Both the position numbers and the translations under genes were made by a program. Under the pieces are notes generated by a model. That model ran no database searches. It was not told the DNA's origin and saw only the letters and a program-made list of their open reading frames with translations. This document shows, one piece after another, positions 3,889-60,891 of a DNA stretch of 64,000 nt. How positions within the stretch are numbered: position 1 is the first letter of the stretch; every line of letters starts with the position of its first letter. This DNA comes from Chloranthus sessilifolius (lineage: Eukaryota; Streptophyta; Magnoliopsida; Chloranthales; Chloranthaceae): NCBI GenBank assembly GCA_021018995.1, contig CM037590.1, forward strand, positions 86,522,097-86,586,096, given 5' to 3'.

Positions 3889-3920
3889 ATGATCTGTGTC
3901 CATGACAGTGGACAGATCAT
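3889..3920 (+). other. 32-nt leader hairpin, element A
   Basis: Arms ATGATCTGT and ACAGATCAT pair perfectly around a 14-nt loop. It lies about 450 bases downstream of the TATA box, hence in the transcribed leader. One of 13 copies of identical length in the window. Confidence 0.7.
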
Positions 3921-4446
3921 AGCCATAAGTTCAACTCAATCCTAATCCTTGAATTGGATTATTTTCTCTTACATCTGAGCTGGTAGCCAGATGAAGATTT
4001 AATACTTTCTCAACTGTGCTACACTATTTCTCATTCTGCAATCAATTACTAAGCTTAAGCCAATTGTTATTTCTCCATTCTTATTAATTTTGCATCCAAT
4101 TCCCCCCAACTCGGATCTGGATCACATAGTTTAAATTCTACTTGTAGATAATTTAGTTAATGTGATAAATTCAACCTCTCATCTTACTTGCTTTGTTGAT
4201 AGGATTAGAGGCCAGATCTGATAGCTCAGATCAGGAGGTTTACCATACATTTTAAATCAATTCTCTGTGGATGATCTTTTACTCACTTACATTTAAAACT
4301 TGCTACAATTGGCCCTGATCTTGCAGGCTAATTGATTTCTCTCTGTGCTGATATTTCTTTCTAGTTTTCTAATCAAAGTATAATCCATCCTTTGAAAAAT
4401 CTGTTTTCAAAATACAAATAAATCAGGCACACTTAGAACGACAACA

Positions 4447-4619
4447 ACAACTGACCAAGTTGGTCCTCTATCTTTTTTAAGCTCTAGTTGTGAGTGCACA
4501 ACTTGGGTTAAGGTATTCAAGCTCTGCAGTGAAGATAGAACTTGTTCTTCAAAGGATGGTGTTCTCACAGTTGAAGGATGTGCAGCTTGCTGCACAGGAG
4601 GAGCTACAGGTTGGGCCAT
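4447..4619 (-). pseudogene. gag segment of element B left of C
   Basis: Continues the B gag on the far side of the inserted C; encodes a Pro/Ala/Gln-rich piece (MAQPVAPPVQQAAH) and a Gln/Leu-rich helix-like piece. Bounded on the right by the GCCAT target duplication of C and on the left by the 3' LTR of A. Confidence 0.7.
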
Positions 4620-6479
4620 TGTTGTCGCTCCAAGTGTGCCAAAATTGTATGCATTATAAATCAAAAATTAAAGAATTAAAGAATGCTAAATTATATGGAT
4701 GTTAACTTATGAAAGGGATATCGGCACATTGGGGCTAACACTGGCCTGCAAGATCAGGGCCAGTTGTAGCAAGTTTTAAAAGTAAGTATTTCAAGATCGT
4801 CCACAGAGAAGTTTGTCTAAAATGAGAGATAAACCTCCAGATCTGTGCTACCAGATCTGGCTCTATAATTATCTAAATAAAGAATAGATAAAAGAGAGTG
4901 TTGGGTTTTGTCACGTTTAACTAAAAGCAAATAAAGAAAAGAACTAACTACGTGATCCAGATCTGAGTTGTGGAGGTGTTTAAAATAAGACAAATGCAGA
5001 AATAATAGCTTCATGTACTTTAGCCTCTGAATTTTAATGGAGAATCTGTAGTTCAACAGAGCAGATTCAATCTTCATCCTGCTACCAAAGATGTATGTAA
5101 GAGAAATAAACCAATTAAGGAATAGGTTTAGACTTATGGTGTGATTTGTCACAGATCATCACTAGTCAGGCCTATTCTTTATTTCGTAACATGAACATCA
5201 CTGTAAATGCTACTTGAATTAGGTTACCAAGGCTAATTCGCACAGGGATGATGGATTAAGGGAAGTTGAATGCGGATAAGTGAATCTAAAGAAGTCGAAT
5301 GCACTAAGGTGAACATTCAGCACCCTCGACATGACTCCAAAGGAGAAGAGACAAATTACAAAGAAACCTTTTAAAATCCAACGTTACAATTACAGAGCAC
5401 GGCTTTAGAGAGCCCTCAGACTTACCCTGAGCTTCTCGTGAGAGCCCTCATTTACGCCTTGAATCCGAACTTGGAAGTACAAATCACTCACAATGGCTCT
5501 CAAAGGTAAAATACAAGAAGGGATTTGGGGATCGGATGAGTTTCGACCGGAATGGGGAAACAGAGATGAAAACTCTAAAACTGGATACCCAAATTGGGCA
5601 AATGGTCTGCCTATTTATAGTTTTCCTAAGCCTCAGATGTGTATCAACCAATCGTAATTGGATAGATCTCAGATCAACCAATAGGAGTCGAGCACTAGGA
5701 TCCAGATCTGCTCGCCAATCGTAAATGCTTGATCCGTTCACCAATCAGAAACAGAGGCATCAATTACATTATGTAATTCAAAAATCTGTTTGAGCTTCTA
5801 GAAGTTCCCGCCAAGTAATTTCATCTTTGGGTGTTCACATGGGTGGAATATGCCTTTGGTTCATGCTCGTAATCTTCCTAATGTCCTTGGGTTTTAAAAC
5901 GCATTGGGCGCTGCAAAGTTTCCTAAATACCTTCTGACGAGCCGCAAATCCCCGTAATGCCATTTCGCATAGTTTAAGGGCTTTTTCCAGAGTAGTTTGG
6001 CTCCGTAAGCTCTTCTTCGCAAAGCATTTTGGCTTCGTGGAGATCTTTTCGCAAAGCATTTTGGCTTCGTGAGATCTTTTCGCAAAGGACTTCTCTTCTT
6101 TTCGCAGAGTGTTTTCTTCTTTCGCAAAGGTCATTCTTCTCGAGGAGTGTTTTCTTCTTTTCGCAAAGTTCAAGGTTCTTTATGAATAGTAGAAGTTCTT
6201 TGCGAATTGACTTTTAGCTTCCATTCTTCTTTGCGTAATGGATCCTTCTTCTTCTTCGTGTCTTTTCTTGCTCTTTAGGACCTTTTAGCCATTGCCGAGG
6301 CTATTTCTTCACTCCTCTTTGAGTTTGACATGTTGTCACTTTTGATCATTTTAGGATGGTTTTGATTTGGACCGTCTTTTGGTTAGCGCAATATGAACAC
6401 TAAAGCACTTATTTAGTCCTCTCAAGGGTCTTTCAAGGCTCGTGTTTAGGGGTAAAAATGGTATTTTCACTACTTATCA
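4620..6479 (-). repeat. 3' LTR of element C
   Basis: Begins (minus strand) TGATAAGTAGTG and ends GCGACAACA. U3 carries an array of TTTTCGCAAAG-type words (about 6000-6240), GATTGG boxes (about 5648-5750) and a TATA box, CTATAAATAG, at 5611-5620. An inverted repeat around CAGATCTG lies at 4832-4862 and the conserved tail word CCTGCAAG near 4743. Confidence 0.9.
5611..5620 (-). promoter_or_regulatory. TATA box in 3' LTR of C
   Basis: CTATAAATAG on the minus strand, downstream of GATTGG boxes and of the CG-word array. The identical sequence is at 11211-11220 in the 5' LTR. Confidence 0.65.
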
Positions 6480-8044
6480 CACCCCAAACCTAAGCTTTGC
6501 TAGTCCCCGAGCAAAGAAACATAAAAACAAAGTAAAGAGCCACTTTTGTAGGAAGAAGCAGGTGCATTTAGCATATGCAACAAGCCTTTAAACCCCTAGG
6601 TGATCCCTAGAGGAGGAGTGAAGTCTCTGAGGGTTTTCAAAGTGAAGGTACCCACAAACTTCCATGAAACGATTAACATCAAGGTGCAATATTATCAAAT
6701 GAGCAATCAAGGAGCAGGGTTAGTTACTCTTGAATCAATGATGAAATGAAAATTTGATTATTGTTTGCAGAATTTAAACATTTATAAACCTCATGAATGT
6801 TTCAATATTTCCAACTGTGAACAAATATAGAAAATCATACAAATGTGCCAAATAGAAGCTCATCCTATGGATAAAAATTAGGTTATAAGTCATACTTAAG
6901 GTGCTCAAGTTCCAACCCAAATACTCACCAGTATACTCATCACTGTTTTTGTTGAGGGGTTCATTTTCACTCAAGCTCAAGAGCGCTTACATCTCCCAAC
7001 CGGATCTCGTAAGCATGAGCATAGGCATGATTCTTAGGCAATGGCATCATTGACATCTCCTCACCATAGATTGGGTCACTTCTCATCTCCACATGATCTC
7101 ACTCAACTTTGGATCACAAGGGCTTTTAATCTAGGTTTGTTTGTATGGCTTATGGAGTGAAGTTTCAAGGAAAGGCAATTTGAACAGAGGTTTGAATTTG
7201 AGAACTCGTGAAGTGCGGAGATGGTTCATGACTCCACCTTTTTGAGTTTAGCTTCTTTCTTCTTCTTTTCGAGATTCTCACATTCACAAAGGATCAGCTT
7301 CTTTCTTTGATCTTGCATTTTTCAACATAAGGTCCCTTTTTTGCCTTTTTGCTTGCAACTTTTCACATTGTTTGTCTCTTCTTTTCTCACCACCATATTG
7401 CCTGCTTTTGAGGTATTTTCTTCATTTTCTTGATGTTGCCCGTAAATGGTCCATCTTCGCTTCTTTCTCCTTTACCTCAATTCTCGTGAGTGAGGGAAGG
7501 CTGAATTGGTTCCATAGGTTCAAAAAAGTACTTTTGAGTATTTTGATGAAGAATTGTAGGATTTATGCTCAAATGGGGTACAAATAGGGCAGATTTTTCT
7601 TGGTTGGTTCTCATAGGTTCAAGTCATCCAAAGAAGGCCTTGATCTTTTCCTCGCTTCATGAGTGTGTTACTTGTTTTAATTTGGAGTTTCCTAACTTCT
7701 AGTGGATCTAATGCCTCACCCAATCCTTTGAATCGGAAAAATTGCCTCATCACTCTTCAATGAGATGAAAATATATGAGCTCAATTCTCACTTATGGTTT
7801 TTCCTTGAGCTTTTAAGTATATCTTTACCTTTTCTCTTCCTTTTGACTTACTACGTCGATACCAGATGTTTTATGGTCAAATCATCGTGGAAATGTAGAA
7901 TATCGCAAGGTGTAGAATGTCTAAATTTGGCAAAGGAATTTTAAATTTTCTAGTTGTCATGATTCTAAAGTAAATTAATACATTTCCTAATTACTTAGGT
8001 GATTCTCACGCCCTTATGTTAACTATTCCCTAGGCAGACTTGTT

Positions 8045-8081
8045 CACACCCCCAAACCTATGAGGAGCAAAGTGTCTCCCA
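8045..8081 (-). other. Internal polypurine tract motif, element C
   Basis: TAGGTTTGGGGGTGTG on the minus strand (8045-8060), preceded by a weakened form of the TGAGGA/TCCTCA hairpin, 1.57 kb from the 3' LTR as in A. Confidence 0.7.
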
Positions 8082-8099
8082 CCGGTTCAAAGGTGGTGG

Positions 8100-8730
8100 C
8101 ATAGTCACGCTATTAGGGGAAAACAGAGAAAAATAATAGCATGGAGAATTGCGAAAGCAAATTGCATGAACCAGAAATTTTACTGAGAAAATAAAAGGAA
8201 AAGAGGGGGAAAGGGAGTAAGGGTGAGGGGGGTGGGAGCTATCTCCATAGGCTCATAGAGGGGGGTGGTGTGTGAAGGGGTATCTGGAATGGCAATGATA
8301 GATGGAGGGCTATCCGGGATAGGGAGGGGTGGGGTGTAAGGGACCAGGGCCTTCAATGGCCATGAGGTGCGAAGAGCCGACTCGGACTGTGAGGAAGGGT
8401 AGGGGCTGGCCGAGGCTCAGGGAAGTTTGAGGCTCCTCTTCACTGCAGCTTCAGAATGGTTCTCGCTTCAATTCCAGCAGAAGAGCAGGCTCGTTCAGTC
8501 TGCAAAGAAAGATGTTCTTCAATGGGCTCAACAACACAGGTGAATCAAGAAGAAGAAGTTGTGCAAAGAAAGAAAAGGAGCAGGCAACAGGGCTCCAGCT
8601 TCCTCATTCTCCTTAACATGGCCGGGCAGAGGGTGGCATATCTAGGGAGGGGGATGGAGTGGTAGGGGACTAAAGGGGGTCCACTGGGAGGGGGGTGGGG
8701 GGTTAAGAGAGGGTCAAGAGGATAAAAGAA
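8100..8730 (-). pseudogene. ORF3 tail relic, element C
   Basis: The minus strand holds CCCCTACCACTCCATCC followed by a diverged match to the VPYHSIP block that ends ORF3 in A, set in a C-rich, Pro-coding context. Degenerate; recognised only by comparison with A and G. Confidence 0.5.
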
Positions 8731-10191
8731 GAAAGAAAAACTAAGAACAGAAAAAATCTAAACTATATGCAGCAGAAAATAAAAATGTAAAATTGAATAT
8801 ATATGAGCAAGGAAATGGAAAACATGATATACAAATGCAAGAAAAATCAACAAAACAACGCTAGAACTGCTAAAAAAAATAAAATCTAAAAAATAGCAGG
8901 ATTGCTATGCAAATGGAAGGAAACTAATGCTAATAATAGAGAAACAGTAAAAACAAGGTAAGGGACTGCATACAAAGTTTTTAAAAAAAAAATAGAAAAG
9001 TGTTGATACAAAAACAGAATTTGTGAATGAAAAATAGGAAAACAATGTTATAAACTAACTATATTCACAGAAAAATGACGAAAATCAATAAAACGAGGAC
9101 ACATTAACCTAAGAAAGAAAAAAAATCAGCGATCTAAAAACAGAATTTGAAACTAAAATTCCTAAAACAGAAAATCTAATGCCAAATGATATATCCTAAG
9201 CCCAAAGAAACAAACCCAAAAGCCTGAGATACTTATGAATCTAAGTGATTATAAAAATGATTAGGTGAATACAAAGAAAAGCAAGATTCATAAGATTGAC
9301 CCTTTGTTGATGATGTGTATGAAAAATAATGAAGCATGGGAGCACATATTAAAAGCAGGGTTCACACAAATGAGACCCATTTATGATGAAGAAATCAAGG
9401 AAAATAAAATAAGTGGGTCCATTGAATATTCAAAACTATGATTCACTACTCATTATCCTACATGATTCCTTAAAAAAATGATCTCAAAGAGTCCAGGATG
9501 GGAAACGTGGATGCAAATGGAGAAAACAAATACGAAAGATATATATATATTTTTTATTTTTATAATTTTCTATATTTTTTATTTTTATTTTTTTACTTGT
9601 TTTGATCAGCCTGTGCTCAACAAGAGCCCTTATTTACTATCGCTGAAAATAATGAGAAACAACTAAGAGATTTTCTATTTGTGTTTTCATTTTCTTTTAT
9701 TTTGTATTTGGTTTTGTAAAAAAAAAGATGCCTAAAAGACAGAGAAATTATAATCGTAACAAACAATAAACACAACAGAATCTTTGGTTCTCAAGAATTT
9801 AAAATAGAAAATGAATGCCAAGGAGAAGGATGCAAAACTCAAGCGATCTGCCCACTTTTGGTCCAGATGTTCTTTGTTGACTGCCCAGATCTCAAACATC
9901 CAAAACTGCAAAGAAGACTTATTCAAGTATTGATAAAAATAAAAGAAAAACTCAAAGCACGCCCAAATTTGACAAAAAGACAAAAGAGTGGCGTGACATT
10001 TATTCAAATAACTAGAAGGCAAAGAATAAAAACTAGAAAAAAAAAAAAAAAAAAATTGAAAGAAACAGTGTTTTCTATACAAAATCGTCAGAGACATTTA
10101 ATCAAGCACTTGGAATGCAAAGTGCAGGTTTTTAAAAAAAAAATTAAAATAAATGAAAATAAACATAGGCTTATCTATTTTAGAACAAACA

Positions 10192-10209
10192 TCCCCGACA
10201 ACGGCACCA
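10192..10209 (-). other. Primer binding site of C (tRNA-Asp type)
   Basis: Minus strand TGGTGCCGTTGTCGGGGA, close to the tRNA-Asp 3' end complement typical of Athila, six bases from the LTR end. Confidence 0.8.
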
Positions 10210-10215
10210 AAAACT

Positions 10216-12078
10216 TGTTGTCGCTCCAAGTGTGCCAAAATTGTATGCATTATAAATCAAAAATTAAAGAATTAAAGAATGCTAAATTATATGGATGTTA
10301 ACTTATGAAAGGGATATCGGCACATTGGGGCTAACACTGGCCTGCAAGATCAGGGCCAGTTGTAGCAAGTTTTAAAAGTAAGTATTTCAAGATCGTCCAC
10401 AGAGAAGTTTGTCTAAAATGAGAGATAAACCTCCAGATCTGTGCTACCAGATCTGGCTCTATAATTATCTAAATAAAGAATAGATAAAAGAGAGTGTTGG
10501 GTTTTGTCACGTTTAACTAAAAGCAAATAAAGAAAAGAACTAACTACGTGATCCAGATCTGAGTTGTGGAGGTGTTTAAAATAAGACAAATGCAGAAATA
10601 ATAGCTTCATGTATTTTAGCCTTTGAATTTTAATGGAGAGTCTGTAGTTCAACAGAGCAGATTCAATCTTCATCCGCTACCAAAGACAGATGTAAGAGAA
10701 ATAAATCCAATTAAGGAATAGGTTTAGACTTATGCGTGATTTGTCACGGATCATCACTAGTCTGGCCTATTCTTTATTTGAACATGAACATCATCGTAAA
10801 TGCCGCTTGAATTAGGTTACCAACGCTAATTCGCATGTGGATGATGAATTAAGGGAAGTTGGATGCGGATAAGTGAATCTAAAGAAGTCTAATGCACTAA
10901 GGTGAACATTCAGAACCCTCGACATGACTCCAATGGAGAAGACACAAATTACAGCATCCTTTTAAAATCCACCGTTACAATTACAGAGCACGGCTTCTTA
11001 GAGAGCCCTCAGACTTACACCCGAGCTTCAGAGAGCCCTCGATTCTGATCCTTGAATCCGAACTTGGAAGTACAAATCACTCACAATGGCTCTCAAAGGT
11101 AAACTACAAGAAGGGATTACAGGGGGTTCAGATAAGCTATCTTACCGGAATGAGGGAAACAGAGATGAAAACTCTAAAATCTGGATACCCAAATTGGGCA
11201 AATGGTTCGTCTATTTATAGTTTTCCCTGAGCTTTACCGATGTGTATCAACCAATCGAATTGGATAGATCTGTATCAACCAATAGGAGTCGAGCACCGTG
11301 ATCCGGATCTGCTCGCCAATCGAAATGCTTGATCCGTTCACCAATCGTGAAATAGAGGCATCAATTACGTATGTAATTCAAAATCTGTTTGAGCTTCTAG
11401 AAGTTCCCGCCAAGTAATTTCATCTTTGGGTGTTCACATGGGGTGGAATATGCCTTTCTGCTCGAATCTTCCGGAATGTCCTTGGGTTTTAAAACGCATT
11501 GGGCGTGCAAAGTTTCTGAAATACCCTTGACGAGTAAATCCCGTAATGCCATTTCGCATAGTTTAAGGGCTTTTTCGCAGGTAGTTTGGCTCCGTAAGCT
11601 CTCTTCAGCAAAGCATTTTGGCTTCCGAGATCTTTTCGCAAAGCATTTTGGCTTCAGATCTTTCGCAGCGACTTCTCTTCTTTTCGCAGAGTGTTTTCTT
11701 CTTTTCGCAAAGGTCATTCTTCTATTCGAGGAGTGTTTTCTTCTTTTCGCAAAGTTCAAGGTTCTTTGCGAATAGTAGAAGTTCTTTGCGAATTGACTTT
11801 TAGCTTCCATTCTTCTTTGCGAATGGATCCTTCTTCTTCTTCAGGTCTTTTCTTGCTCTTTTAGGACCTTTTTAGCCATTGCTGAGGCTATTTCTTCACT
11901 CCCTCTTTGAGTTTGACATGCGTTGTCAGCTTTTTGATCATTTTAGGATGGTTTTCGGATTTGGACCTGTCTTTTTGGTTAGCTGCAATATGAACACTAA
12001 AGCACTTATTTAGTCCTCTCAAGGGTCTTTCAAGGCTCGTGTTTAGGGGTAAAAAATGGTATTTTTCACTACTTATCA
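10216..12078 (-). repeat. 5' LTR of element C
   Basis: Partner of 4620-6479. Several hundred bases at the U5 end are nearly identical; elsewhere small differences cluster. CG-word array at about 11570-11830, GATTGG boxes at about 11268-11345, TATA box at 11211-11220. The edge ACTTATCA is followed by target duplication GCCAT. Confidence 0.9.
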
Positions 12079-13551: not shown

Positions 13552-13569
13552 TCCCCGGCAACGGTGCCA
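13552..13569 (-). other. Primer binding site of B (tRNA-Asp type)
   Basis: Minus strand TGGCACCGTTGCCGGGGA, six bases from the LTR end; the Athila primer type. Confidence 0.85.
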
Positions 13570-14069: not shown

Positions 14070-14210
14070 ATGATCTATCCACTTTAATGGTCACAGACCA
14101 TCCTATAGACTTTATCGAATCCATGGATTGTAGCAGATGAATCCAATTGGAGGTTGCGCTTAGATTCATCTTAAGGTTATGATCTATCCACTTTAATGGT
14201 CACAGACCAT
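14070..14210 (-). other. Two 32-nt leader hairpins in B LTR
   Basis: Copies at 14070-14101 and 14179-14210. In transcript sense the arms are ATGGTCTGT and ATAGATCAT, pairing with two G-U wobbles around a 14-nt loop. Both are followed by a CCTTAA-type word. Confidence 0.7.
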
Positions 14211-14698: not shown

Positions 14699-14708
14699 CT
14701 ATATATAG
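14699..14708 (-). promoter_or_regulatory. TATA box of B LTR
   Basis: CTATATATAG between the CG-word array and the leader hairpins, matching the order in the other Athila-like LTRs. Confidence 0.65.
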
Positions 14709-18773: not shown

Positions 18774-18811
18774 GATTGGCTGAAATAGATCTGAGAAAAA
18801 GGTATAAATAG
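18774..18811 (+). promoter_or_regulatory. Core promoter of D LTR
   Basis: GATTGG box followed by GTATAAATAG; downstream of the CG-word array and about 420 bases upstream of the first leader hairpin. Confidence 0.65.
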
Positions 18812-19225: not shown

Positions 19226-19329
19226 ATGATCTGTGACCATTAAAGTGGACAGATCATAGCCTTAGGATTGCTTTGATATGTTGGGACAATCTCTGGGATG
19301 GTCTGTGACCATTAAAATGGACAGATCAT
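19226..19329 (+). other. Two 32-nt leader hairpins in D LTR
   Basis: Copies at 19226-19257 (ATGATCTGT with ACAGATCAT, perfect) and 19298-19329 (ATGGTCTGT with ACAGATCAT, one wobble). Each is preceded by GACAATCTCT and followed by GCCTTAGGATTG, so hairpin and flanks duplicated as a unit of about 72 bases. Confidence 0.75.
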
Positions 19330-20870: not shown

Positions 20871-20875
20871 GCTGC

Positions 20876-28714: not shown

Positions 28715-28716
28715 TC

Positions 28717-39818: not shown

Positions 39819-40294
39819 TGATATGAGATGGTAAAAATCAGAATACAAAGGTGGAGTGAAATGGCTATAAAAACAGCAACCTAAAGTACACACAGCCTAC
39901 AAGATACAGGGCTATTGTAGCAAGTTTTAAATAAGTAAGAGTTTGTCCCACAGAGATAATGATCTAGAACCTAAAATGGGCTATAATAGTAGGCCTCCAG
40001 ATCTGACAATCCTAAAGAAAGGGAGTTGGGTGTCACAACTACACTAAATTAACACTAAAAGAAGAGAAATAAATTGCAGCCCTATCCTATAGAAATGGTT
40101 ATGAAGAAGGTAGTGATGGTGTGTATTAAAATAAAGATAAAATGATGAGAAGTAGGCAATTAAGCTAAAGTTAATTTAGTTATGTAACTCAGATTTAGGT
40201 TGTCTCTGTAGCAAATCCCTCAGATGGCTACAAGCTCATCTGCAAGGAAGAAGTATCCAACTCAACCCATGCCATTTAGACTGCTCTTAAGGCT

Positions 40295-40828
40295 ATAACC
40301 TGTCCACTTAAATGGTCACAGACTATCCAACAGAGTTTGTCAAATCCCATTGATCAAATCAGAAAACTAACCTAATCCAAAGGAGTGGACTGATCTTAAG
40401 GCTATAACTTGTCCACTTAAATGGTTACAAACTATCCAATAGATTTCCTCCAACCAATGAATTAAATCAGGCGATGAATACCATTGTAGACACTGTTTTT
40501 AAGGCTATAAGAATATGCATCCATAGGATTGAACAGACTTTGAAAACTAGGTGAAAACCACAAGGTATCTCAGGCTGAATGAGGACTTAGATTCAGCTGG
40601 TCATTGCTACAAAAGGCTTGCAATGACTCAGTTCACAAGTTTGCAATCACTTCAGAGAAATCAGATCTAACATCTAATATTGGTCAAGTAAAACAGAGGG
40701 GAGCTAGGCTCTGCACAATCTCTCACTAGGCTACAAGCTCAAGTGTAGAGAAAAAGAATCCATCTCAGATCTGTGACCAAGATCTGCCCTAGGGCTATAG
40801 TCTTTTCACTTAAATGGTCATAGGCTAT
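40295..40828 (-). other. Three 32-nt leader hairpins in G 3' LTR
   Basis: Copies at 40295-40326, 40404-40435 and 40797-40828. In transcript sense the first has arms ATAGTCTGT and ACAGGTTAT, pairing with two wobbles; the others are weaker. Each is flanked by a CTTAAG-type word. Confidence 0.7.
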
Positions 40829-41291
40829 CCACAAAGGCTGCCTTACCCATAAATGATGAGATAGAATATGTAAACTACTACTACCAATATGGTCCCAGGG
40901 CTACAAGCTCAAGCTTCCATGGGCGTTTCAATCATCTTAAATCCTAAATGCGTTCTATAGTCTGAATAAAATTACGGGCAAATAGGAAAATAATGGATTG
41001 AATGAACATTTAAAATACAAATTCCATTGATCAAAATTATCTATAATGTAATTTCTCAAAGCAGCAGCATTGTGCATAGCAACTCTTCACAAAATCCTAA
41101 TGTTCACATGACCCATTATAAAACTAAATAAAACTATACCTAATTGCTTACAGAGGGTTTAGCCAGCAAGTGATGAGCTAAGAGAGAAGAAAAATGGGAA
41201 AAAGAAATGATCAAACCCTAACCCTAGTCTACTCGAGCTCACCACAGATAGAGGTTGAAGGAGATATCCCAATTCTAAGTTACAACTGCAA

Positions 41292-41300
41292 CTTATATAC
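41292..41300 (-). promoter_or_regulatory. TATA box in G 3' LTR
   Basis: GTATATAAG downstream of the CTCGCGAGG array and about 470 bases before the first leader hairpin. Confidence 0.6.
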
Positions 41301-42408
41301 TCAGTCCCTAATGCCTTGGCTCAGTGAAGAGTAAACCCTAATTTTTCAAGAAGATGCGGCACTGTTACAACCCTTGAATGCCTTGGGATGTGTGCCCCGA
41401 GATTAGGGCCTCGAGATGTGTGCCCTTGACTTGGGGAAATCCCTAAAAGGTCCCTAGAGTTAAGATTGAGAAGTGAGGAGCATGAGCTTCGCGAGGCTGC
41501 CTTCTGCATATTAAATCTTTCATGTGGTTTGTAGAGTCCTCGCGGGGTAAGATTTTGGCTTGGAAGGTCCCTGGTTCGCGCGGTAGATCTCCAAATGGTT
41601 ACGCGGCTACTTTACACTGCAATACTGTCACGAGGATGAGTTGCACTATTGGCTTGCTCGCGCAGTAGGGATTCAAAAGCTCCTCTCGCAAGGGTGTCGC
41701 GAGGATGCCTTTAACTCTCACTCGGTTTCTTTTCACATGATTTCGCAACTCGCTCGGAACTGGGTTGAACCTCTAGGCATGCGAGAGCTGTGCGAGATAA
41801 TTTTTGGGTGTCTCTCTCCTCCAGAGCCACATGAGAACTTTGCGAGGTTGCTATTGCTGTTTGTGCAAATTGGTCTCGAGAGGTAGTGTGCGCGGCTGGT
41901 TTAAAACTTGATCCTCGCGAGCTGTATTTTTGAAGGCTTAGTGTGTGACTACTTCACGAGTTCCTTAGGCATTGATTTCAACTGAATTGCATGACTATTG
42001 CACAAGTTCCCTTGTGCTGCATGTCTTAGCTACGCGAGGAACCTTTGCTAGTGAATTGAAGAGCATGAGGCAGCACCTCAACTGTGCGAGATAAGTCATT
42101 TGTTGTTGCTATGCACATGCTTCTGTTGCAACTTCCTCCACTCTCATCTATTCTTCTTTCATCTGTTAGACTTCCATGTTCCATCATGACATGTAAAATA
42201 ATTACCATGGTGTTCTATCAATCTCTAGGTCAGCTGTCATCCTTGGCTTGAAATCTCTCTTCTTGGCACCAAAGGCATGGACTTTCTGTTAAGCTGCACA
42301 AGTTATTACTAATCTACAAAACAAGCTAAACAATAGTTATTAGGTAGCTTCAAGGTTCAGCAAAGGCTAAGTTAAAAGGTGAAAAGTGGTACTCTTTAGT
42401 GAATAGCA

Positions 42409-47518: not shown

Positions 47519-47859
47519 GCTACTCAATCCTTCAAAATTAGGGCTTTAAACTCCTAGCAGGTGTAATGCACTCTTCAGAAATAAAATAGAACCTAAATTC
47601 CTCTCTACTAATCACCAAATTAGTATCCAATCAACTAACAGAGAGGGAGTAAGAAATCTTACCAAAATGAAGCTAGGGTTCCACCCCAACCGATGCACAA
47701 TGGTTCTAATATCCCCAAACCGAGTTCAAAGTGACTAAGAAGTGATGGGGAGTAAAATGGTAGGAGGAAACTATCTGAGGTGGAGTGGGGTAGGTTGTAG
47801 AGAAGAAAGAGAGCTCAGTTTTTTGTGCAATGGAAGTTAGGGCAAAGAGATAGTATGGA

Positions 47860-50120: not shown

Positions 50121-50175
50121 TCTCAACTCCCTTTTCATCCTTGATCTTTAGATTAAACTCCTATAACAGGAGGAT

Positions 50176-51400
50176 TCATCTGATCAACCTTGGTTTGGCA
50201 TCCTTCTTAGCCAATAGATATTTCAGGGCTGAGTGATCAATAAAAACAATAATTTTAGGCTCCAACAAGTAGGGTCTAAACTTGTCCACAGCAAACACCA
50301 TAACAAGTAGCTCCTTCTCAGTGGTGGTGTAATTGAGTTGAGCTTCAACTAGTATTTTGCTGGCATAAGAAATCACTGCAGGCAGCTTATCTTTTCTTTG
50401 TCCTAAGACAGTACCTATGGCCAAGTCAATTGCATCACACATCAGTTCAAAATGGAGTGAGTAATCTGGGGCCTGGATTACAGGAGCAGTGGTAAGGCAC
50501 TTTTTAAAGACCTCAAAGGCCTCAAGGCACTCAGCAGAAAATTCAAATGGGACATCTTGACACAGCAGGTGGCATAATGGCTTTGCAATTTTGCTAAAGT
50601 CCTTAATGAACCTCCTGTAAAATCCAGTATGGCCTAAAAATAATTTGATTTGCTTGATAGTCCTGGGTGGGGGTAGGTGTGAAATCAAGTCCACTTTAGC
50701 CTTGTCAACCCCTATTCCTTTGTGAGAGACCACATGGCTTAATATAATTCCTTGTGTCACCATAAAGTGACTCTTTTCCCAGCTTAGGATCAAATTGGTC
50801 TCCTCACATCTTTATAAAATCAGGTCAAGGTGACTCAAGCATTTGCTAAATTTGTCCCTATAAACTGAGAAATCATCCATGAAGATTTTCAGAAACTTAT
50901 CAATCATATAAAAAAAAATTGTATACATGCACCTCTAAAATGTGGCTGGGGCATTGCACAGTCCAAAAGGCATCCTTCTGTAAGCAAAGGTGATAAAGGA
51001 ACATGTGAAAGTATTTTTTTCTTGATCTTGAGGATACACAGGGATTTGGTTATACCCTGAGTATCCATCAAGAAAGTTGTAAAATGCCTTCCCAGCCAGC
51101 TTATCTAGAATTTGGTTAATGAAGGGGAGAGAGAAATGGTCTTTCCTGATTTTGGAGTTGAGTTTTCTATAATCAATGCAAACTCTCCAGCTAGTGGTCT
51201 CTCTGGCTGGCATCAACTTCCCATAATCAGAAGCAACAACTATTATGTCTAACTTTTTAGGTACCACCTGGATGGGTGACACCCACTCTAAATCTGAAAT
51301 GGGGTAAATCACCCCTGCATCCAATAATTTTACTATCTCCTTGAGGACCGCCTCTTGCATGTGAGGATTAAGTTTCCTCTACATCTCCCATGAAGGTTTT
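50176..51400 (-). pseudogene. Reverse transcriptase and RNase H of element G
   Basis: RT landmarks: VKLLDAGVIYPISDLEWVSP, WRVCIDYRKLNSKIRKDHFS, FYNFLDGYSGYNQIPVYPQD, RRMPFGLCNAPATF, and the connection LFLGHTGFYRRFIKDFSKIA. RNase H: LMCDAIDLAIGTVLGQRKDK, NYTTTEKELLVMVFAVDKFR, VFIDHSALKYLLAKKDAKPR. Broken. Confidence 0.85.
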
Positions 51401-52570
51401 GCACCCTCTTCCAAGTGAATTTTGTGCATGCAAACTGAGGCATCAATGCCTCCAAGATCAGCTATTGTCCACCCCATTACCTTTTTATGCTTCTTGAGAA
51501 TACTCAATAATTTCTCCTCTTACTCACTAGTGAGAGAGGAAGAGATAATCACTGGGAGCTTATTGTTTCACCCTAATAAGGTATATTTTAATGTGTCTGG
51601 GAGCTATATCAGCTCCAGCTTAGGGGGACTTTCAGTGGAAGGCAACAAAGGTGCCTTAGTGGTTTGAGGAAGGGACAGTAATGTATGTTTCCAGCTGGAA
51701 TGCTACACTGGGCTCACAGAAGACTCTATTTTGGTGTTGTCTTCTGTCATGAGAGTTTGGGCCTCCTCAACCCAATTCCAAATATCTTCCAGATCCTCAA
51801 TCACATTATCCCAATCCAGCAGATTGAACAATTCTTCTTCTAGAAGGCCGTCTAGTACATCAATTGCACAGCAGTCCTTAGTGTCCATCTGAGGCTGCCT
51901 TGTAGCATTCTACATATTTAATTAGGCATTCATATTCCCAAAGGTCACCTCCATCACCCCTGACCTGCATTGAACGCAAGCATTTGTAGTGGCCAAGAAT
52001 GGTCTGCCAAGGATGACAAGAATTGGGGTTTTACTTGTGCAAGGGTCCATGTCCAAAACAAGGAAATCAGCAGGATAGTAGAACTTGTCCACCCCCACCA
52101 AAACATCATCCACCACACCCACAGGTCTCCTCTAAGACCTATCAGCCAGTTGGAGCACAACTGATGTGGATTTCATCTCCCCCAAACCTAGCTCCTCATA
52201 CACAGAATATGGGAGCAGGATCACATTGGCCCATAAGTCCAAGAGGGCTTTATCAATGGTATGGTTTCCAATTATGCAGGGGATGGTAGGTACCCTTGGG
52301 TCCTGTAATTTCTCAGGTATGGCAATGGACAGAACTGACTCAACATGTTCAACAGTAAAATCCTTTTTGGATAACTACACCCTTGCTTTTCTTTTCTGTG
52401 TGCAAAGGTTCTTCAAGAATTTAGCATATGCAGGGACCGGTTTTATAGCATCAAGCAAGGGCAAATTAATCTTGACCTGCTTGAAGGTCTCTATCATTTC
52501 CTCTATCTGAGCATTCCCCTTATCAAAAGGAGATGGGCAATCTAATGCATGATGAAATAGCAACTATAGG
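51401..52570 (-). pseudogene. Protease and linker of element G
   Basis: GVDKFYYPADFLVLDMDPC and VILGRPFLATTNACVQCRSG are the characteristic second half of Athila protease. 51703-51888 codes an acidic linker (LLEEELFNLLDWDNVIEDLE) to RT. Broken. Confidence 0.75.
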
Positions 52571-52619
52571 ACTGTTGCTGCCACAGCTGAATGGCCAACA
52601 ACATCATGGTCAAATTTAT

Positions 52620-54245
52620 ATTTTTTCTTTTTTCTTTATTTATTGTTTGCTATTCGGGCTCAACATCAGCCCCTTTATTTTTCCCTTGCTGATCCACAGC
52701 AGGGGATGAATTCTTTGACACTTCACCACTCACATTTCTATCATTTTCACTCTCCATGACCTCCTCAGTTGCCCTGCCCACTAAATTATCAACCACCCTG
52801 CCACTCCTCAGGGTAGTGATTGCATTAGCCTCCTCATGGGCAGAGGATGCTTCTCCAATCATGAACTGCCCTTTTAGATTGGCCAATGGTTAACTAGGCA
52901 ATTTGCCTTCCTCTCTCTTATTCAAAGCATTATAGATTTGATCTAGCTGATCCTCTATTTTTTAAGGCTTTGCCTATGAGAGTTCACAGTTTGGATCAAG
53001 TTCCACAAATTCTACATAGATGCCAATATTTTCTCTTCAAAGGAAGAGGATCTAGGCTATTATGGGGCCAAGACCAACTGATTGGGATGTGTGGCAGATA
53101 ACAGAAAATTTTGTCTTGGTGGATAACCTTGGTTAAATTGGTGTTGAAGTCTGTATAGAGCGGCCAACTACTGCTGCTGGTATTGAGGGTATGTATCTTG
53201 TCTCTACCTCAAATTTGGGTGGTTTCTCCATGTGTACCTAGCAGGTTGCTGACCATATGCTTGGGCAGCATTGTCATGCTCCATAACTAAATCGGGGAAT
53301 TGGTTGACTAATGGACAATCTTGGAATAAATGTGTGGGAGATTGGCATATCAGACATGCCTCTTCCACTTGTGCAACCATCCGAGGCTGCATCACATTCA
53401 TCAATTTGTCAAACTTAAAACTCAGATTGTCCACCTTCCTTTCCAAATCATTTTGGACCTTAACTTCATACATTCCACCTCTAGGGGCAGACTCTTTCAC
53501 CAATTTAGTAGGAATCTAACTGTCATTGCGAGACAGTGACTCCTGCTGCATGGAATTTTCTCCTATGATGTCAAACAACACCCAAGCCTCATCAGCTGTC
53601 TTATGGAGGTAACTACCACCACATGAGGCATTCACCATATCCCTACTCTTGGGATTAATTTCTTCGTAAAAGACTTGCACCAGTTGCCACTGTGGAATTT
53701 GATGGTGGGGGCATTGTTTTAATATCTGTTGAAATCTCTCTCATGCCTCATAAAAATTCTCAGTTGAGAACTTAGTAAATGACAAAATGTTTGTCCTCAT
53801 CTGGCTGATTTTATTCATGGGAAAGAATTTAATCAGAAATTGGCTTTGGAGGTACTCCATGTCTGAATGCTATTGGCTGGAAGCTTAGAGAGCCAGGTGT
53901 TGGCTTTGTCCTTCAGGGAAAAAGGAAAAAGCCTTAGTTTGGTGACTTTAGGTCCCAAGCCAGCAATATTGAAAGTGGTACGAAGTGCCAAAAATTGGTC
54001 AATGTGCTTGCAAGGATCTTCCTTACTGAGCCCATGGAAAGATAGCAACATGTTAATGGTGGAGGACTCAATTTCATAATTTCCCTCAATTGAAGGGAAT
54101 TGTATGCAAAAGGGAGATGTGTAATCCCCAGGTGCATTATATTCCTTCAGGGTTCTTTGCCTCTCAGCCATGACAACTAGCTCAGTTTCAACAGTAGGGC
54201 CTTTGGTAGTGTTTCTTGGTCTAAGGACCCTTTCAACCTCAGAAT
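52620..54245 (-). pseudogene. gag of element G
   Basis: RTLKEYNAPGDYTSPFCIQF start, capsid core LSFHGLSKEDPCKHIDQFLA and RLFPFSLKDKANTWLSKLPA, knuckle CLICQSPTHLFQDCP, then a region with ANAITTLRSGRVVDN that leads to protease in Athila. Closely parallel to the gag of B. Broken. Confidence 0.85.
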
Positions 54246-54604
54246 TTGAAGTTCCAACTCACAGTTAAGGGACCTTCTTCCAAGCATATACACACAAACT
54301 TAGCAGGTAAACAAAATGCTCACAGCACATAAAAATTTTTCAAACCAAATTAACAACTAAACAAATTTACAACTAAACTAATGATAGAGAATTCAACATT
54401 AAGGGATTGAGTTTTAGGGTAAAAGAAGTGCAAACAGAGCTTGCTAAACTCTAGTTGTAGCTCTAGCTTTTCCCTACTATTGCTGTCCAATTCTGCAAAA
54501 TTCTATAAAAATCAGTAGTACTTTTTATTCTATTTAAAGCACAGCTACAAAGAATTTTCTATACTAAAATATAGTACAACTCAGGTCTACTAAAAAGATC
54601 AATA

Positions 54605-54622
54605 TCCCCGACAGCAGCGCCA
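54605..54622 (-). other. Primer binding site of G (tRNA-Asp type)
   Basis: Minus strand TGGCGCTGCTGTCGGGGA. It lies 38 bases from the LTR edge defined by the target duplication, whereas B and C have six. Confidence 0.8.
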
Positions 54623-54660
54623 AAAACTTATTGATTTGTGTATCAGGTGTTTATTTAAAG

Positions 54661-56806
54661 TGATATGAGATGGTAAAAATCATAATACAAAGTGGAGTGA
54701 AATGACTATGAAAACAGGAACCTAAAGTACACACAACCTGCAAGATACAGGGCTATTGTAGCAAGTTTTAAGTAAGAGTTTGTCCCACAGAGATAATGAT
54801 CTAGAACCCAAAATGGGCTATAATAGTAGGCCTCCAGATCTGACTACAGTTCTGACAATCCTAAAGAAAGGGAGTTGGGTGTCACAACTATACTAAATTA
54901 ATACTAAAAGAAGAGAAATAAAATACAATCCTATCCTAAAGAAATGGTTATGAAGAAGGTGGAAATGATCTATATTAAAATAAAGATAAAAGGATGAGAA
55001 GGAAGCAATTAAGCTAAAGTCAATTCAGTTATGTAACTCAGATTTAAGGCTGTCTCTGCAGCAAATCCTTCCAATGGCTACAAGCACATCTGCAAGGAAG
55101 AAGTATCCAACTCAACCCATGCCATTTAGACTGCTCTTAAGGCTATAACCTGTCCACTTAAATGGTCATAGACTATCCAATAGAGTTTGTCAAATCCCAT
55201 TGATCAAATCAGAAAACCTACCTAATCAAAAGGAGTGGACTAATCTTAAGGCTATAATCTGTCCACTTAAATGGTCATAGACTATCCAATAGATTTCCTC
55301 CAACCAAGGAATTAAATCAGGCCATGAATACCATACAGACATTATGTTTACAAGACTATAAGCACATGAATCCATAGGAGCAAACAGACTTTGAAAACCA
55401 GGTGGAAACCACAAGGTATCTCAGACTAAATGAGGGCTTAGATTTCGCTGGTCATTGCTATAAAAGGCGTGCAATGACTCAACTCACAAGTCTACAATCA
55501 CTACAGAGAAATCAGATCTAACATCTGATATTGGTCAAGTAAAATAGAGGGGAGCTAGGCTCTGCACAATCTCTCACTAGGCTACAAGCTCAAGTGCAGA
55601 GAAAAAGAATCCATCTCAGATTTGTGACCAAGACCTGCCCTAGGGCTATTGTCTGTCCACTCAAATGGTCACAGGCTATCCACAAAGGCTGCCTTACCCA
55701 CAAATAATGAGATAGAATATGTAAACTACTGCAACCACCATGGTCCCAGGGCTATAAGCTCAAGCTTCCATGGGCCTTTCAATCAGCTCAAATCCTAAAT
55801 GCATCCTATAGCATGAACAAAACTACGGGAAAATAGAAACATAAGAGATTGAATGAACATTTAAAATATAAATTCCATTGATCAAAATTACCTATAATGC
55901 AATTTCTCAAGGCAGTAGCCTTGTGCACAACAGCTCTTCACAAAATCCCAATGTTCACAAGACCCATTACAAAACTACTTTGCACTGCAATACTGTCACG
56001 AGGATTAGTTACATTGCTTGGCTTGATCACACTGTAAGGCTTCAGAAGTTCCTCTCGCGAGGGTGTCATGAGGATGCCTTTAACTCTCGCTGAATTTCTT
56101 TTCACATGATTACGCAGCTCGCTTGGTACTGGGTTAAACTTCTAGGCACCCGAGAGCTGGGGGAGATAGTTTATGGGCGTCTCTCTCCTCTAAAGCCACG
56201 CGAGAACTTTGAAAGGTTGCTGCGGCTGTTTGTGTAAATTGGTCTCGCAAGGTAGTGCGCGACTGCTTTAAAAGTTGATCCTCGCGAGAGCTTCACGAGC
56301 TGTATTTCTGAAGGCTTATTCCGTGACTACTTCGCGAGTTCCTTAGGCATTGATTTTAGCTGAATTGCATGACTACTGCATGAGTTCCCTTGTGCTGCAT
56401 ATCTTAGCTACGCGAGGAAGCTTTGCTAGTAAATTGAACAGCGCGAGGCAGCACCTCAACTGTGCGAGATAAGTTATTTGTTCCTTTGCTGCTATGCACG
56501 TGCTTCTGTTGTAGCTTCCTCCACTGTCATCTATACTTTTTTCATCTGTTAGACTTCCTTGGTCTATCATGGCATGCAAAATAGTCACTATGGTGTGTAC
56601 CACCATGGTGCTCCATCAATCTCTGGCTCAGCTGTCATCCTTGCCTTGAATTCTCTCTTCTTGGCACCAAAGACATGGACTTTGTGTTAAGCTGTACAAG
56701 TTATTACTAATCTATAAAACAAGCTAAACAAGAGTTATTAGTCAGCTTTAAGGTCCAGCAAAGGCTAGGTTAAGAGGTGAAAAGTGATACTTTTCAGTGA
56801 ATAACA
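54661..56806 (-). repeat. 5' LTR of element G
   Basis: Partner of 39819-42408. CTCGCGAGG array about 55990-56440; hairpins at 55145-55176, 55254-55285 and 55648-55679. Ends ATAACA followed by GATAT, where the F LTR resumes. Confidence 0.9.
55145..55679 (-). other. Three 32-nt leader hairpins in G 5' LTR
   Basis: At 55145-55176, 55254-55285 and 55648-55679, matching in order and spacing those of the partner LTR; all 32 nt long. Confidence 0.7.
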
Positions 56807-58286: not shown

Positions 58287-59937
58287 GAAATGATACACCT
58301 TCCATTTTTATTTTGAGTGACAACCCTGGTGAGACTTGGGTCTTAAATTAAGTTTGTTAGGGGCATTATCTAAATAAAATTCTCAAATTAATGGTGAGTT
58401 GTGCACTAATTTCCACACACAACATCCTTTATATGAGCTGATTGGTTGTGGAGGAAGTTAAACTTGATTTCAGTGTTAAAATATTGTTTTACTATTGTGA
58501 CTCCTCTAAAAAATTTAAAGAATAAGGTGTGGAATGAGTTTTATTTGGTTGAACTCTGTTTTAACATGTTACACTGACATTAACTATTTTATTGAGAAAT
58601 TTGTGGGTACCTTCATTGAAAACCCTCAGGAGACTTTACTCCTGCACTAGAGATCACCTAGGGGTTGAAAAGGCTTGGTGCATATGCTAAATGCATCCGC
58701 GCTCCCTACGAAAGTGGCATTTAAGTATTATAGAATAATGGCTTAATTTTCACTTTGCTTGAGGACTAGCAAAGATTAAGTTTGGGGGTGTCTTAGTCAC
58801 TGGTTTTTATCACTTTCTGCCTCTTAAACCTAGCTTTTGCTAGGACTTAGAGTGATTAATAATTGCTTTTAAGTGTTGTTTTACAACTAGGAATAAATTG
58901 CATTCATAGTGCAAAAATCCATTAATAAGTGCCAAGAAGAGGAGATTAGAATCATCCAATAGTGTTGAGACAGGTGTGGCCCATGGCCTGAAAGATAGCT
59001 GCTGCTATTGGAATATATGGCAAAACAAAGCTGCCCAAGACTCAGCACCTTCAGCTCCAAATTGTCAAAGAAACCATCTTCAGCTCTGGGCACATTGGAA
59101 CATAACACAGCAGCACATTCAGTTGTGTGCATATACACTAGCACATTAATGAAGAGCAGCATCAGCAGCACACTAGAACAACCATGTGCAGCTGTACATA
59201 TAAACAACTGTTAAACTAAATTAAAGCTACAACAGTGTGGAGTAGAATAGCTTTAGCAATGTGGACTTGAGGTTCAGCAATATATGGAAGTGGTGCACTT
59301 CCCAACCTATCAAACGCAAGAGAGCAAAGTCCAACCTATCGAGTGTTGAAGCTGAAACTGGGTACCTGTCGATTAGTGTTGAAGCAGAAGTGTGCACTGT
59401 TCAAGCAGTGCTGAAGCTGAAAGCCAACCTATAAGTGCTTCAATGCTGAAGCTGAGAACCTATCGATTGGTGCTGAAGATGAAGTGAACTAGTCGAGCAG
59501 TGTTGAAGCTAAACTGGGCACTTGTCGAGCAGTACTCATCCAAGCATTCAACCTATCGAATGGTGTTGAAGCCCATTCAGCCAACCTATCGAATAGAACA
59601 CTGCTGATGCTGCTGTTTTGAAGACCTGCTTCAGTACCTGTCGAATAGTGGTCTTCAACTGGTCGAATGGATGGCTGAAGCACTCTTCATCTTCTCAAAG
59701 TGAATCAAAGTTCTTCAATGTGCTCCAGCTCGGGCCCATTGGGTTCTAACTGATTTCATACATTATTAATGGACATTTGAGGGGCAGCTTTGGGATTTTC
59801 AACAAGGCACATAGGATAGCAGTCCACATGAGAAATATTTCATAACTAAATGGAATATTCTTGGGCTGAAATCAAGTAATTGTAGTTGAGGATAACTGTA
59901 AATATTCTTCTTTCACCTGATTGGCCAAAACACTAAT

Positions 59938-60028
59938 CACATGGATTTGAATATGCTGAAATAAAATCCTCCTCTCTGATTGGTCAACAAAAAATAAAGC
60001 ACAGGGATGGCTGCATATGTATAAATAC
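59938..60028 (+). promoter_or_regulatory. Core promoter of H LTR
   Basis: Two GATTGG boxes and GTATAAATAC, after the CG-word array and about 440 bases before the first leader hairpin. Confidence 0.65.
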
Positions 60029-60461
60029 CAAATTGATTTTTGTGGTTTAGCAACAAGGAAGCTAGGAAATTCTCAGCCTCCCTTAGCTCAAATTAGGTTT
60101 AGTTTTAGGTGTTCTTTTCCCTCTTTTTTTCCCTCTTTTCTCTCCCTAATACAGCTTGTTGGATAAGTTCTTGGTAGCAGCTGAGATTATTCTAATTTAT
60201 AAATGTGTGATGTAATTACATTGTGAGGAGTTCAGAATTTCAGAGACTGCTGCCTCGAGGGAAATCATTGTAAGTTTTGTTAATTCAATGAGAAACTGTT
60301 GTGAATGTTTAGTTAGATATGTAAATTTTCTACTCAAATGCTTTAGATGTTTATAGATCTGATGCACCTATGGATGCCTATGCTTGTAGCTTTGCATCCA
60401 TAGTGGCAACAGTAATGTTCTTGGTCTAATTTTAACCTTTTGGCTGGCACACATCTATGGG

Positions 60462-60891
60462 ATATGCTGTGACCATTTGAATGGATAACATATAACCCTA
60501 GGACTGGTTCAGATTTGAAGGTTGGGTTAGATTCTTTTTCCAAGCACTTGTGCTTGTAGCCATGTGATGGATTTCTGCAGATCTAATTCCCACTCTATTG
60601 TAACAGCCCTCTTTTCAACATTTTGATTTGGAGTCTAGCAGAAATTACGGACTTGAGAGCTATGCCATTGTAGCTGTTTGAAGCAATGACCAGCTGACTT
60701 TAATGCCTCAGTTGAGCTGTGATTTTCTTGTGATTTTCACTAGAATTTTATAGATCTGCTGCTCCCATGGATACTTGTGCTTGTAGCTTGACATCCATAG
60801 TGCCTGCAATAGTTTTCTTGTTTCAATTCCAGGCTTGTGATTAGATGAGATCCCTGAGATAATCTGTCACTATTTAAGTGGATAGATTATA
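60462..60891 (+). other. Two 32-nt leader hairpins in H LTR
   Basis: 60462-60493 has arms ATATGCTGT and ATAACATAT; 60860-60891 has ATAATCTGT and ATAGATTAT. Both pair despite sequence unlike the other elements, which is the strongest covariation in the set. Confidence 0.75.

What the first reader, a model, noticed from the sequence alone, without database searches (positions are those of the whole stretch)
3889..60891. A 32-nt hairpin with covarying arms is conserved in the RNA leader of five Athila-like LTR families
Thirteen copies, all exactly 32 nt (9-base arm, 14-base loop, 9-base arm): A 3889-3920; B 14070-14101, 14179-14210; D 19226-19257, 19298-19329; G 40295-40326, 40404-40435, 40797-40828 and the same three in its partner LTR at 55145, 55254, 55648; H 60462-60493, 60860-60891. 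Arms in transcript sense: ATGATCTGT/ACAGATCAT (A, D), ATGGTCTGT/ATAGATCAT (B), ATAGTCTGT/ACAGGTTAT (G), ATATGCTGT/ATAACATAT (H1), ATAATCTGT/ATAGATTAT (H2). Changes on one side are met by pairing or wobble changes on the other, while the loop keeps CCATT..A.GTGG-like bases. The copies lie about 420-500 bases or more after the TATA box, so in the transcribed leader, and were duplicated one to three times per LTR. I infer an RNA element for packaging, dimer formation, translation or primer placement. I know of no described element matching it, but could not search.
Basis: partly seen in the sequence, partly recalled or inferred. Interest (0 to 1): 0.88.

Follow-up and report, generated by a model that had tools for sequence, protein, structure and literature searches.

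The report
Covarying RNA hairpin in plant retrotransposons
A short RNA hairpin sits at a fixed place in the leader of a large group of plant jumping genes and has been kept by paired, compensating mutations across many copies, so it very probably does a job for the element's RNA, though which job is not yet shown.

Summary
All 13 copies are in the window (H2 is off by one base), and a motif scan finds exactly these 13 against 0.01 expected. The window lies in a held 2.17-Gb plant genome. There, a pattern with both 9-base arms left free finds 40,844 sites against 2 for the reversed control. The arms covary: 17-22 both-sided, pair-keeping changes fall in the true register and none in six slid registers, on a tree built without the arms. 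A stricter R-scape-like test passes only pair 3/30 (E 0.03); 4/29 is second (E 0.42). When base 4 is C or T, the partner follows: G in 63 of 71, A in 21 of 29. Refined fold: 3 bp, 2-nt bulge, 9 bp, 2-nt GA bulge, CCAU/GUGG and a UNRA tetraloop (46 of 50 with the loop left free). The first hairpin lies 423-519 nt after the TATA box in 14 elements; the last lies 519-566 nt before the PBS in 13. Sampled families with the same PBS but other LTRs lack it. My best guess is a protein-recognition hairpin, most likely for Gag packaging; that function is inferred, not shown.

The parts
3889..3920 (+). hairpin copy, element A (family with GACA loop)
14070..14101 (-). hairpin copy B1
14179..14210 (-). hairpin copy B2 (identical 32-mer to B1)
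19226..19257 (+). hairpin copy D1
19298..19329 (+). hairpin copy D2 (G.U at pair 4/29, U-A at 15/20)
40295..40326 (-). hairpin copy G1, 3' LTR of element G
40404..40435 (-). hairpin copy G2, 3' LTR of G (U-A at 6/27 where G1 has C-G)
40797..40828 (-). hairpin copy G3, 3' LTR of G (decayed, not predicted to fold)
55145..55176 (-). hairpin copy G1p, 5' LTR of G (not predicted to fold)
55254..55285 (-). hairpin copy G2p, 5' LTR of G
55648..55679 (-). hairpin copy G3p, 5' LTR of G (upper part only predicted)
60462..60493 (+). hairpin copy H1
60859..60890 (+). hairpin copy H2 (finding gave 60860-60891)
5140..5160 (-). apex-deleted remnant of the hairpin in the 3' LTR of element C
   Evidence: alignment with A and D; coordinates
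10735..10755 (-). apex-deleted remnant of the hairpin in the 5' LTR of element C
3434..3441 (+). TATA box of A, 455 nt before its hairpin
14700..14707 (-). TATA box of B, about 496 nt before its first hairpin
18803..18810 (+). TATA box of D, 423 nt before its first hairpin
41292..41299 (-). TATA box of G (3' LTR only), 471 nt before its first hairpin
60020..60027 (+). TATA box of H, 442 nt before its first hairpin
13552..13569 (-). primer binding site of B
54605..54622 (-). primer binding site of G
10192..10209 (-). primer binding site of C (family with apex-deleted remnant)
39819..42408 (-). 3' LTR of G
   Evidence: self-comparison and break in family F
54630..56806 (-). 5' LTR of G (inner end approximate)

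Best explanation
The 32-nt motif is the core of a cis-acting RNA hairpin in the 5' leader (R/U5 part of the LTR) of one clade of Athila-like Ty3 retrotransposons. In transcript sense it folds as a 3-bp foot, a 2-nt 3' bulge, a 9-bp stem, a 2-nt 5' GA bulge, a 4-bp CCAU/GUGG helix and a UNRA tetraloop. Selection keeps the 9-bp stem as a stem (its middle drifts by compensating changes) and keeps the bulge, upper helix and loop as sequence. That is the pattern of a hairpin read by a protein at its tip and held out by its stem. SHOWN here: abundance, compensatory change in register, conserved tip, sense orientation and fixed position between TATA box and PBS. INFERRED: that the stretch is transcribed (from the TATA boxes), that the RNA form rather than DNA is what is selected, that a protein binds it, and that the protein is Gag.
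For: Stem-free pattern: 40,844 sites against 2 in the reversed control. 49 distinct stems from its first 100 listed hits: 415 of 441 cells paired, against 386.7 +/- 3.4 (maximum 399 of 10,000) when 3' arms are re-dealt. On a tree from non-stem columns, 74 copies: 19.1 (17-22 over 20 parsimony resolutions) both-sided pair-keeping events in register, 0 in each of six slid registers, 2.2 for random arm pairings, in 6 of 9 pairs. With base 4 set to C or T (and base 3 to R, base 30 to Y): C4 has G29 in 63 of 71, T4 has A29 in 21 of 29 plus 6 G.U; by distinct stems 19 of 26 and 14 of 20, Fisher p 0.0008. Tip: with arms fixed and loop free, UNRA in 46 of 50, bulge GA in 48 of 50. One-sided changes from a Watson-Crick pair go to G.U 31 times and to A.C 12 times, p 0.005, as expected for sense RNA. 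First hairpin 423-519 nt after TATA in the 14 elements with a TATA match (three distances, L011, L013 and L018, derived by subtracting the spacing to the next copy). Last hairpin 519-566 nt before the PBS in 11 sampled loci plus B and G. Of 20 PBS-sampled pericentromeric leaders, all 11 whose LTR matches a window family have it. Hairpin identity 0.80 against 0.58-0.60 in 60-nt flanks (most copies were found by the motif, so this is biased upward).
Against: Only one pair (3/30, E 0.03) passes the R-scape-like null at 0.05; 4/29 has E 0.42 and the other seven have no support. On a minimum spanning tree of stems the excess is small: 4 against 0-1. None of the six G copies in the window folds better than its shuffles. 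In the rare subfamily with C/T at base 4 the G.U bias is reversed (A.C 34, G.U 18 cells in 46 distinct stems), 19 of the A.C at pair 5/28, where C5 faces A28 in 62 of 76 rows. The one-step test gives G.U 13, A.C 9. Element C has two LTRs that both lack the apex, so it was copied without it; its interior is short and it may have been mobilised in trans. No transcript, no mapped start, no protein partner. Packaging is the least tested step.
Confidence: 0.45

Rival explanations
1. The hairpin works in the same leader RNA but for another step: translation from the long leader, nuclear export of unspliced RNA, or 3'-end formation if the stretch lies in R and is therefore also present near the RNA's 3' end.
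For: Same structural and positional evidence; the stretch lies about 400-490 nt after the expected start, inside the LTR, so it may be in R. Nothing measured here separates these roles from packaging.
Against: None specific. Loss of the apex in element C speaks equally against any strictly essential role.
Confidence: 0.27
2. It is a DNA-level palindromic cis-element, like the repeated palindromes in Sirevirus LTRs: a dimeric transcription-factor site or a target of host siRNA and methylation.
For: Palindromic, repeated, in LTRs, as for Sireviruses (passages of PMC2829016, and PMC10760457). Other families in this genome carry a different palindrome. The G.U over A.C bias is absent or reversed in two of the tests.
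Against: At arm base 4 all four Watson-Crick pairs occur while pairing is kept, which a protein reading two DNA half-sites would hardly allow. The asymmetric GA bulge and non-palindromic tip are well conserved. It lies downstream of TATA in the 14 elements with a match. G.U exceeds A.C in the main samples.
Confidence: 0.13
3. No function: reverse transcriptase or repair copies one arm from the other (quasi-palindrome correction), which makes paired changes without selection.
For: This mechanism is known for imperfect palindromes (recalled); it would give both-sided changes exactly in register, as seen.
Against: It would also erase G.U pairs and fixed mismatches, yet stems with two G.U pairs and a subfamily with a recurrent C.A mismatch are common. 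It does not explain the conserved bulge and loop or the fixed spacing to TATA and PBS.
Confidence: 0.1
4. Shared descent alone: similar arms inherited by related LTRs, with chance pairing changes.
For: Families are related in the 3' part of the LTR at about 60-65% identity; only one pair passes the strict null.
Against: In-register events 19 against 0 when slid, on a tree built from other columns; conditional partner switch.
Confidence: 0.05

Closest known systems
Palindromic repeated motifs of Sirevirus LTRs (Bousios et al. 2010, PMC2829016, passages seen; 2016 paper known only as cited in PMC10760457, passages seen)
   Same: Repeated inverted-repeat motif inside plant LTRs, conserved across families.
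   Different: Ty1/copia, mostly a CGG-CCG core, upstream of the TATA box and read as DNA cis-elements. Here: Ty3 type, AT-rich stem with a variable middle, conserved bulge and tetraloop, downstream of TATA.
Retroviral and Ty1 leader packaging/dimerisation hairpins (Psi, DIS; seen only as search listings with starts of abstracts)
   Same: Leader position between start and PBS, hairpin modules, sometimes in tandem; stem kept by pairing and tip by sequence (comparison recalled).
   Different: No conserved self-complementary kissing loop; function untested; about 540 nt upstream of the PBS. No sequence comparison with such elements was made beyond the Rfam scan.
BARE dimerisation and packaging signals (PMC3735527, passages seen)
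   Same: Plant LTR retrotransposon; that paper mentions conserved dimerisation and packaging signals of BARE2.
   Different: The words stem-loop and hairpin do not occur in its main text; BARE as Ty1/copia is recalled. Sequences were not compared.
Retrozymes (hammerhead ribozymes in plant LTRs; PMC4918200 and PMC9695139, search listing only)
   Same: Conserved structured RNA inside plant LTRs.
   Different: No Rfam family reaches its gathering score in the window.

Membership tests
Any Rfam 15 family | match at or above the gathering score | tested here: not met
   0 matches in the 64-kb window; in 4 hairpin loci only two sub-threshold matches, both outside the hairpins
Sirevirus-type LTR palindrome | dyad with CGG-CCG core (all but one Sirevirus in PMC2829016) | tested here: not met
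   arms are AT-rich, spacer is 14 nt with conserved sequence; definition from PMC2829016 passages
Sirevirus-type LTR palindrome | located upstream of the TATA box | tested here: not met
   downstream, 423-519 nt for the first copy, in the 14 elements with a TATA match
Retroviral kissing-loop dimerisation signal | self-complementary apical loop | tested here: not met
   self-complementary tetraloop in 25 of 74 and 15 of 50 copies
LTR-retroelement packaging hairpin | lies in the transcribed leader | tested here: inconclusive
   fixed distance after TATA boxes and before PBS; no transcript data
LTR-retroelement packaging hairpin | bound by Gag / needed for RNA packaging | not testable with these tools
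   needs binding and particle assays
Athila-like Ty3 retrotransposon | retroelement pol (RT-RNase H, integrase) | tested here: met
   RT_RNaseH, RT_RNaseH_2 and Integrase_H2C2 in element G only; its named best relatives are plant reverse transcriptases. Internal genes of A, B, C, D and H were not classified
Athila-like Ty3 retrotransposon | PBS of the Athila type | tested here: inconclusive
   3 sites with 1-3 mismatches to the typed pattern; that this PBS marks Athila is recalled, and no call names the lineage

The most novel reading that the evidence does not exclude
A previously undescribed family of leader RNA elements: modular hairpins with a UNRA tetraloop and a GA bulge, recognised by Gag, that mark the genomic RNA of a whole clade of plant Ty3 retrotransposons for packaging. 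With more than 40,000 genomic sites it would be the first covariation-supported packaging element in plant Ty3 elements that I know of, and a handle on how autonomous and non-autonomous families share particles.
Probability: 0.35. Interest if true: 0.8.

Novelty: new variant of a known kind. Interest (0 to 1): 0.66.

Why it matters
To my knowledge (recalled) very little is known about which RNA signals plant Ty3 retrotransposons use to mark their genomic RNA. Here is a short, well-defined candidate with in-register compensatory change and natural variants of several kinds (re-paired stems, one-to-three copy leaders, an apex-deleted family). It makes the question directly testable by binding, probing and packaging assays, and gives a searchable signature (stem-free pattern, 40,844 sites against 2) for annotating this clade of elements.

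Tried and rejected
Prokaryote and virus collections: one viral hit and nine prokaryote hits for the motif, not examined further. For the prokaryote set I judge them chance: my own hand estimate from 18 fixed bases and 257 Gb, not from a call, is about 7. No other plant genome could be searched. RT protein in viral contigs: no relative. uORF idea: some arms begin ATG and some loops hold TAA, but G and H arms begin ATA and loop base 17 is free, so no reading frame is conserved. Kissing loop: see above. PBS-sampled leaders on the C1 arm: 0 of 20 have the hairpin; these are other LTR families. A generic hairpin scan of those 20 leaders found other hairpins, none of this kind. The flank profile from a multiple alignment failed through tandem copies and was replaced by pairwise alignments. 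The minimum spanning tree test is weak by construction. Literature searches with answers listed no paper whose title or abstract start describes this element; listings were capped (for example 20 of 39, 12 of 162), one returned 0 papers, and the library holds open-licence papers only. A genome-wide count of the apex-deleted C-type remnant and a test of non-A bases at position 1 were asked for but did not complete.

Disclosure on data: the 50-copy set and the 75-copy set contain one chance match (L029_2992). It was dropped (after the tree was built) and the compensatory count did not change (17-22); one search was not rerun without it. The 74 copies left are 13 from the window, 13 from C7 stretches, 7 from stem-sampled loci, 15 PBS-sampled and 26 from loci chosen for unusual stems. 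Three weak stem-blind hits were left out: L026 and L030 look like chance, while L028:785 looks like a real copy with a one-base-shorter loop. The pattern fixed the bulge, inner helix and most of the loop, so it and the loci say nothing about those; the loop statistic to trust is. The 20 pericentromeric leaders were fetched only from 1150 to 451 nt before the PBS, so a copy outside that span would be missed. The PBS samples are 40 of the 100 places listed of 6,752 found.


Full report
WHAT WAS CLAIMED. Thirteen 32-nt hairpins in the LTRs of five related retrotransposon families, with covarying arms, in the RNA leader. I checked the sequence, then found that the genome in which the window lies is held (2,168,743,587 bases in 32 contigs; the window is C7:86522097-86586096), which made a real test possible.

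OBSERVATION. All 13 copies are there, with one shift of a base (H2). A degenerate motif finds exactly these and no others, against 0.01 expected by shuffling. Element anatomy from self-comparison, PBS and TATA: B, C and G run on the minus strand and A, D and H on the plus strand; G is a 17-kb element (39819-56806) inserted in an LTR of family F, with a 5-base overlap of the flanking matches as expected for a target-site duplication. Most family pairs of LTR pieces align only from about the hairpin region to the LTR end, at about 60-65% identity; A with C, and G or D with H, align further upstream too. Element C, related to A, has the stretch with the apex deleted in both LTRs.

ABUNDANCE. The exact arms ATGATCTGT-N14-ACAGATCAT occur 5,137 times, the reversed control 0 times (the pattern is its own reverse complement, so both strand counts are the same places). 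With both arms free and only GG, the apex (one base free) and one A fixed, 20,365 + 20,479 sites are found against 1 + 1. Twenty 10-kb stretches of C7, one every 500 kb, gave 13 PWM hits against 0 in reversed sequence.

WHO HAS IT. Of 20 PBS-sampled leaders on the arm of C1 (2.9-28.8 Mb), 0 have the hairpin in 2,000 nt, and their LTRs share little more than the PBS with the window families. Of 20 PBS-sampled leaders at 79-86.5 Mb of C1, 11 have one or two copies, all in sense orientation. All 11 match window families; of the 9 without, 6 match the arm families and 3 match nothing. So the hairpin marks one clade.

STRUCTURE. Folding gives 9 bp, a 2-nt 5' bulge, 4 bp and a tetraloop as the minimum-energy fold for 7 of the 13 window copies, with a GG/CC foot across a 2-nt 3' bulge in several. 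G2p, G3p and H1 show it in part, H2 has another apex, G3 and G1p do not form it, and none of the six G copies is more stable than shuffles. With the arms fixed and the loop free (50 places), the loop is UNRA in 46, with the second base T, A, G or C, the bulge is GA in 48, and the upper helix is CCAT/GTGG in 39. In the mixed set of 75 copies the loop is UNRA in 70 (69 of 74 without one chance copy), but much of that set was found by its loop. Positions 7, 9, 14 and 21 never vary there, while 3, 4, 25, 28, 29 and 30 vary most within the stem. The foot pair -3/37 is A-T 25, G-C 10, T-A 9, G.T 9, and otherwise 22 of 75, with about 2 compensatory events.

COVARIATION. (1) Among 49 distinct stems from the first 100 stem-free hits, 415 of 441 cells pair; re-dealing the 3' arms gives 386.7, sd 3.4, maximum 399 of 10,000. 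(2) With a tree from loop and flank columns only and 74 copies, both-sided changes that keep pairing number 17-22 in the true register and 0 in all six registers slid by 1-3; random arm pairings give 2.2; six of nine pairs are involved. One search, with one chance copy included, gave 17-22, with 0 in five slid registers and 1 in the sixth for the resolution printed. (3) An R-scape-like null (substitutions re-dealt along the tree) gives E 0.03 for 3/30 and 0.42 for 4/29, the two best of all column pairs, and nothing for the other seven (E 0.04 and 0.49 with a tree from the same columns). (4) Setting base 4 to C or T finds 1,855 sites; in the 100 listed, C4 has G29 in 63 of 71 and T4 has A29 in 21 of 29 plus G29 in 6; by distinct stems 19 of 26 and 14 of 20. 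Ten fully Watson-Crick stem types are seen among 113 pooled stems. Against: in that subfamily C5 faces A28, a mismatch, in 62 of 76 rows, and a minimum spanning tree of stems shows only 4 compensatory edges against 0-1 when slid.

RNA OR DNA. A sense RNA tolerates G.U but not A.C, while on DNA the two should be alike. G.U against A.C: 50 to 15 cells, 53 to 12, 31 to 12 one-sided changes, p 0.005. But 18 to 34 in the C4/T4 subfamily, and 13 to 9 in the one-step test. This favours sense RNA without settling it.

POSITION. Of 30 copies with at least 1,200 nt upstream, 23 have a TATA match. In the 14 elements these represent, the first hairpin starts 423-519 nt after a TATA match (for L011, L013 and L018 the distance was obtained by subtracting the spacing between neighbouring copies; H and one L029 element have a second match elsewhere). 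The copies in L016 and L020, the chance copy in L029 and the 5' LTR of G have no match. The last hairpin starts 519-566 nt before the PBS in the 11 sampled leaders, B and G. The hairpin is thus anchored between start and PBS although the 60-nt flanks are only 0.58-0.60 identical (0.50 for shuffled), against 0.80 in the hairpin (200 random pairs of 70 copies).

MECHANISM. A conserved tip on a stem whose middle is free, one to three copies per leader, and sense orientation fit a protein-read RNA hairpin. Packaging by Gag is my first choice by analogy with retroviral leaders (recalled), not by test. Translation, export or 3'-end formation are not excluded. DNA palindrome, arm-to-arm copying and descent alone each sit badly with at least one result above.

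KNOWN WORK. The closest published thing I found is the palindromic repeat of Sirevirus LTRs (passages of PMC2829016; PMC10760457, which also reports that maize Ty3 elements generally lack an obvious peak of miRNA-like structures). Those lie upstream of TATA and have a different core. Rfam 15 holds nothing that matches the window at gathering scores or the hairpins of four loci at E up to 1. Nine literature searches listed no description of this element in titles or abstract starts; listings were capped and the library is open-licence only.

VERDICT. Real, very abundant, and structurally constrained; the function is open. A new variant of a known kind (structured cis-acting RNA in an LTR leader).

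Noticed in passing
L035, L038, L039, L054 (leaders on the C1 arm), about 1100 to 880 nt before the PBS: A different palindrome built on TCAATCGATTGA, repeated in some of these LTRs, in families with the same PBS but other LTRs; it looks like a DNA palindrome of the Sirevirus kind.
   Followed up: no
L040, L041, L044, L046, L048, L049, about 900-860 nt before the PBS: Another shared hairpin, GGATGGGGA - 8 nt - TTCCCATCC, in a further LTR family.
   Followed up: no
window 41127-41606: About 480 bp with the TATA box present in the 3' LTR of G but absent from its 5' LTR, probably a deletion after insertion.
   Followed up: partly
C1 copies listed: An expanded subfamily (ATACCCTGT/ACAGAGTAT) carries a C.A mismatch at pair 5/28, so one mismatch is tolerated by elements that multiplied.
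   Followed up: partly
L028:785: A copy whose loop is one base shorter, the only clear length variant among the stem-blind hits.
   Followed up: no
window 4619-12078: Element C has a short interior (about 3.7 kb), looks non-autonomous, and lacks the hairpin apex in both LTRs.
   Followed up: partly
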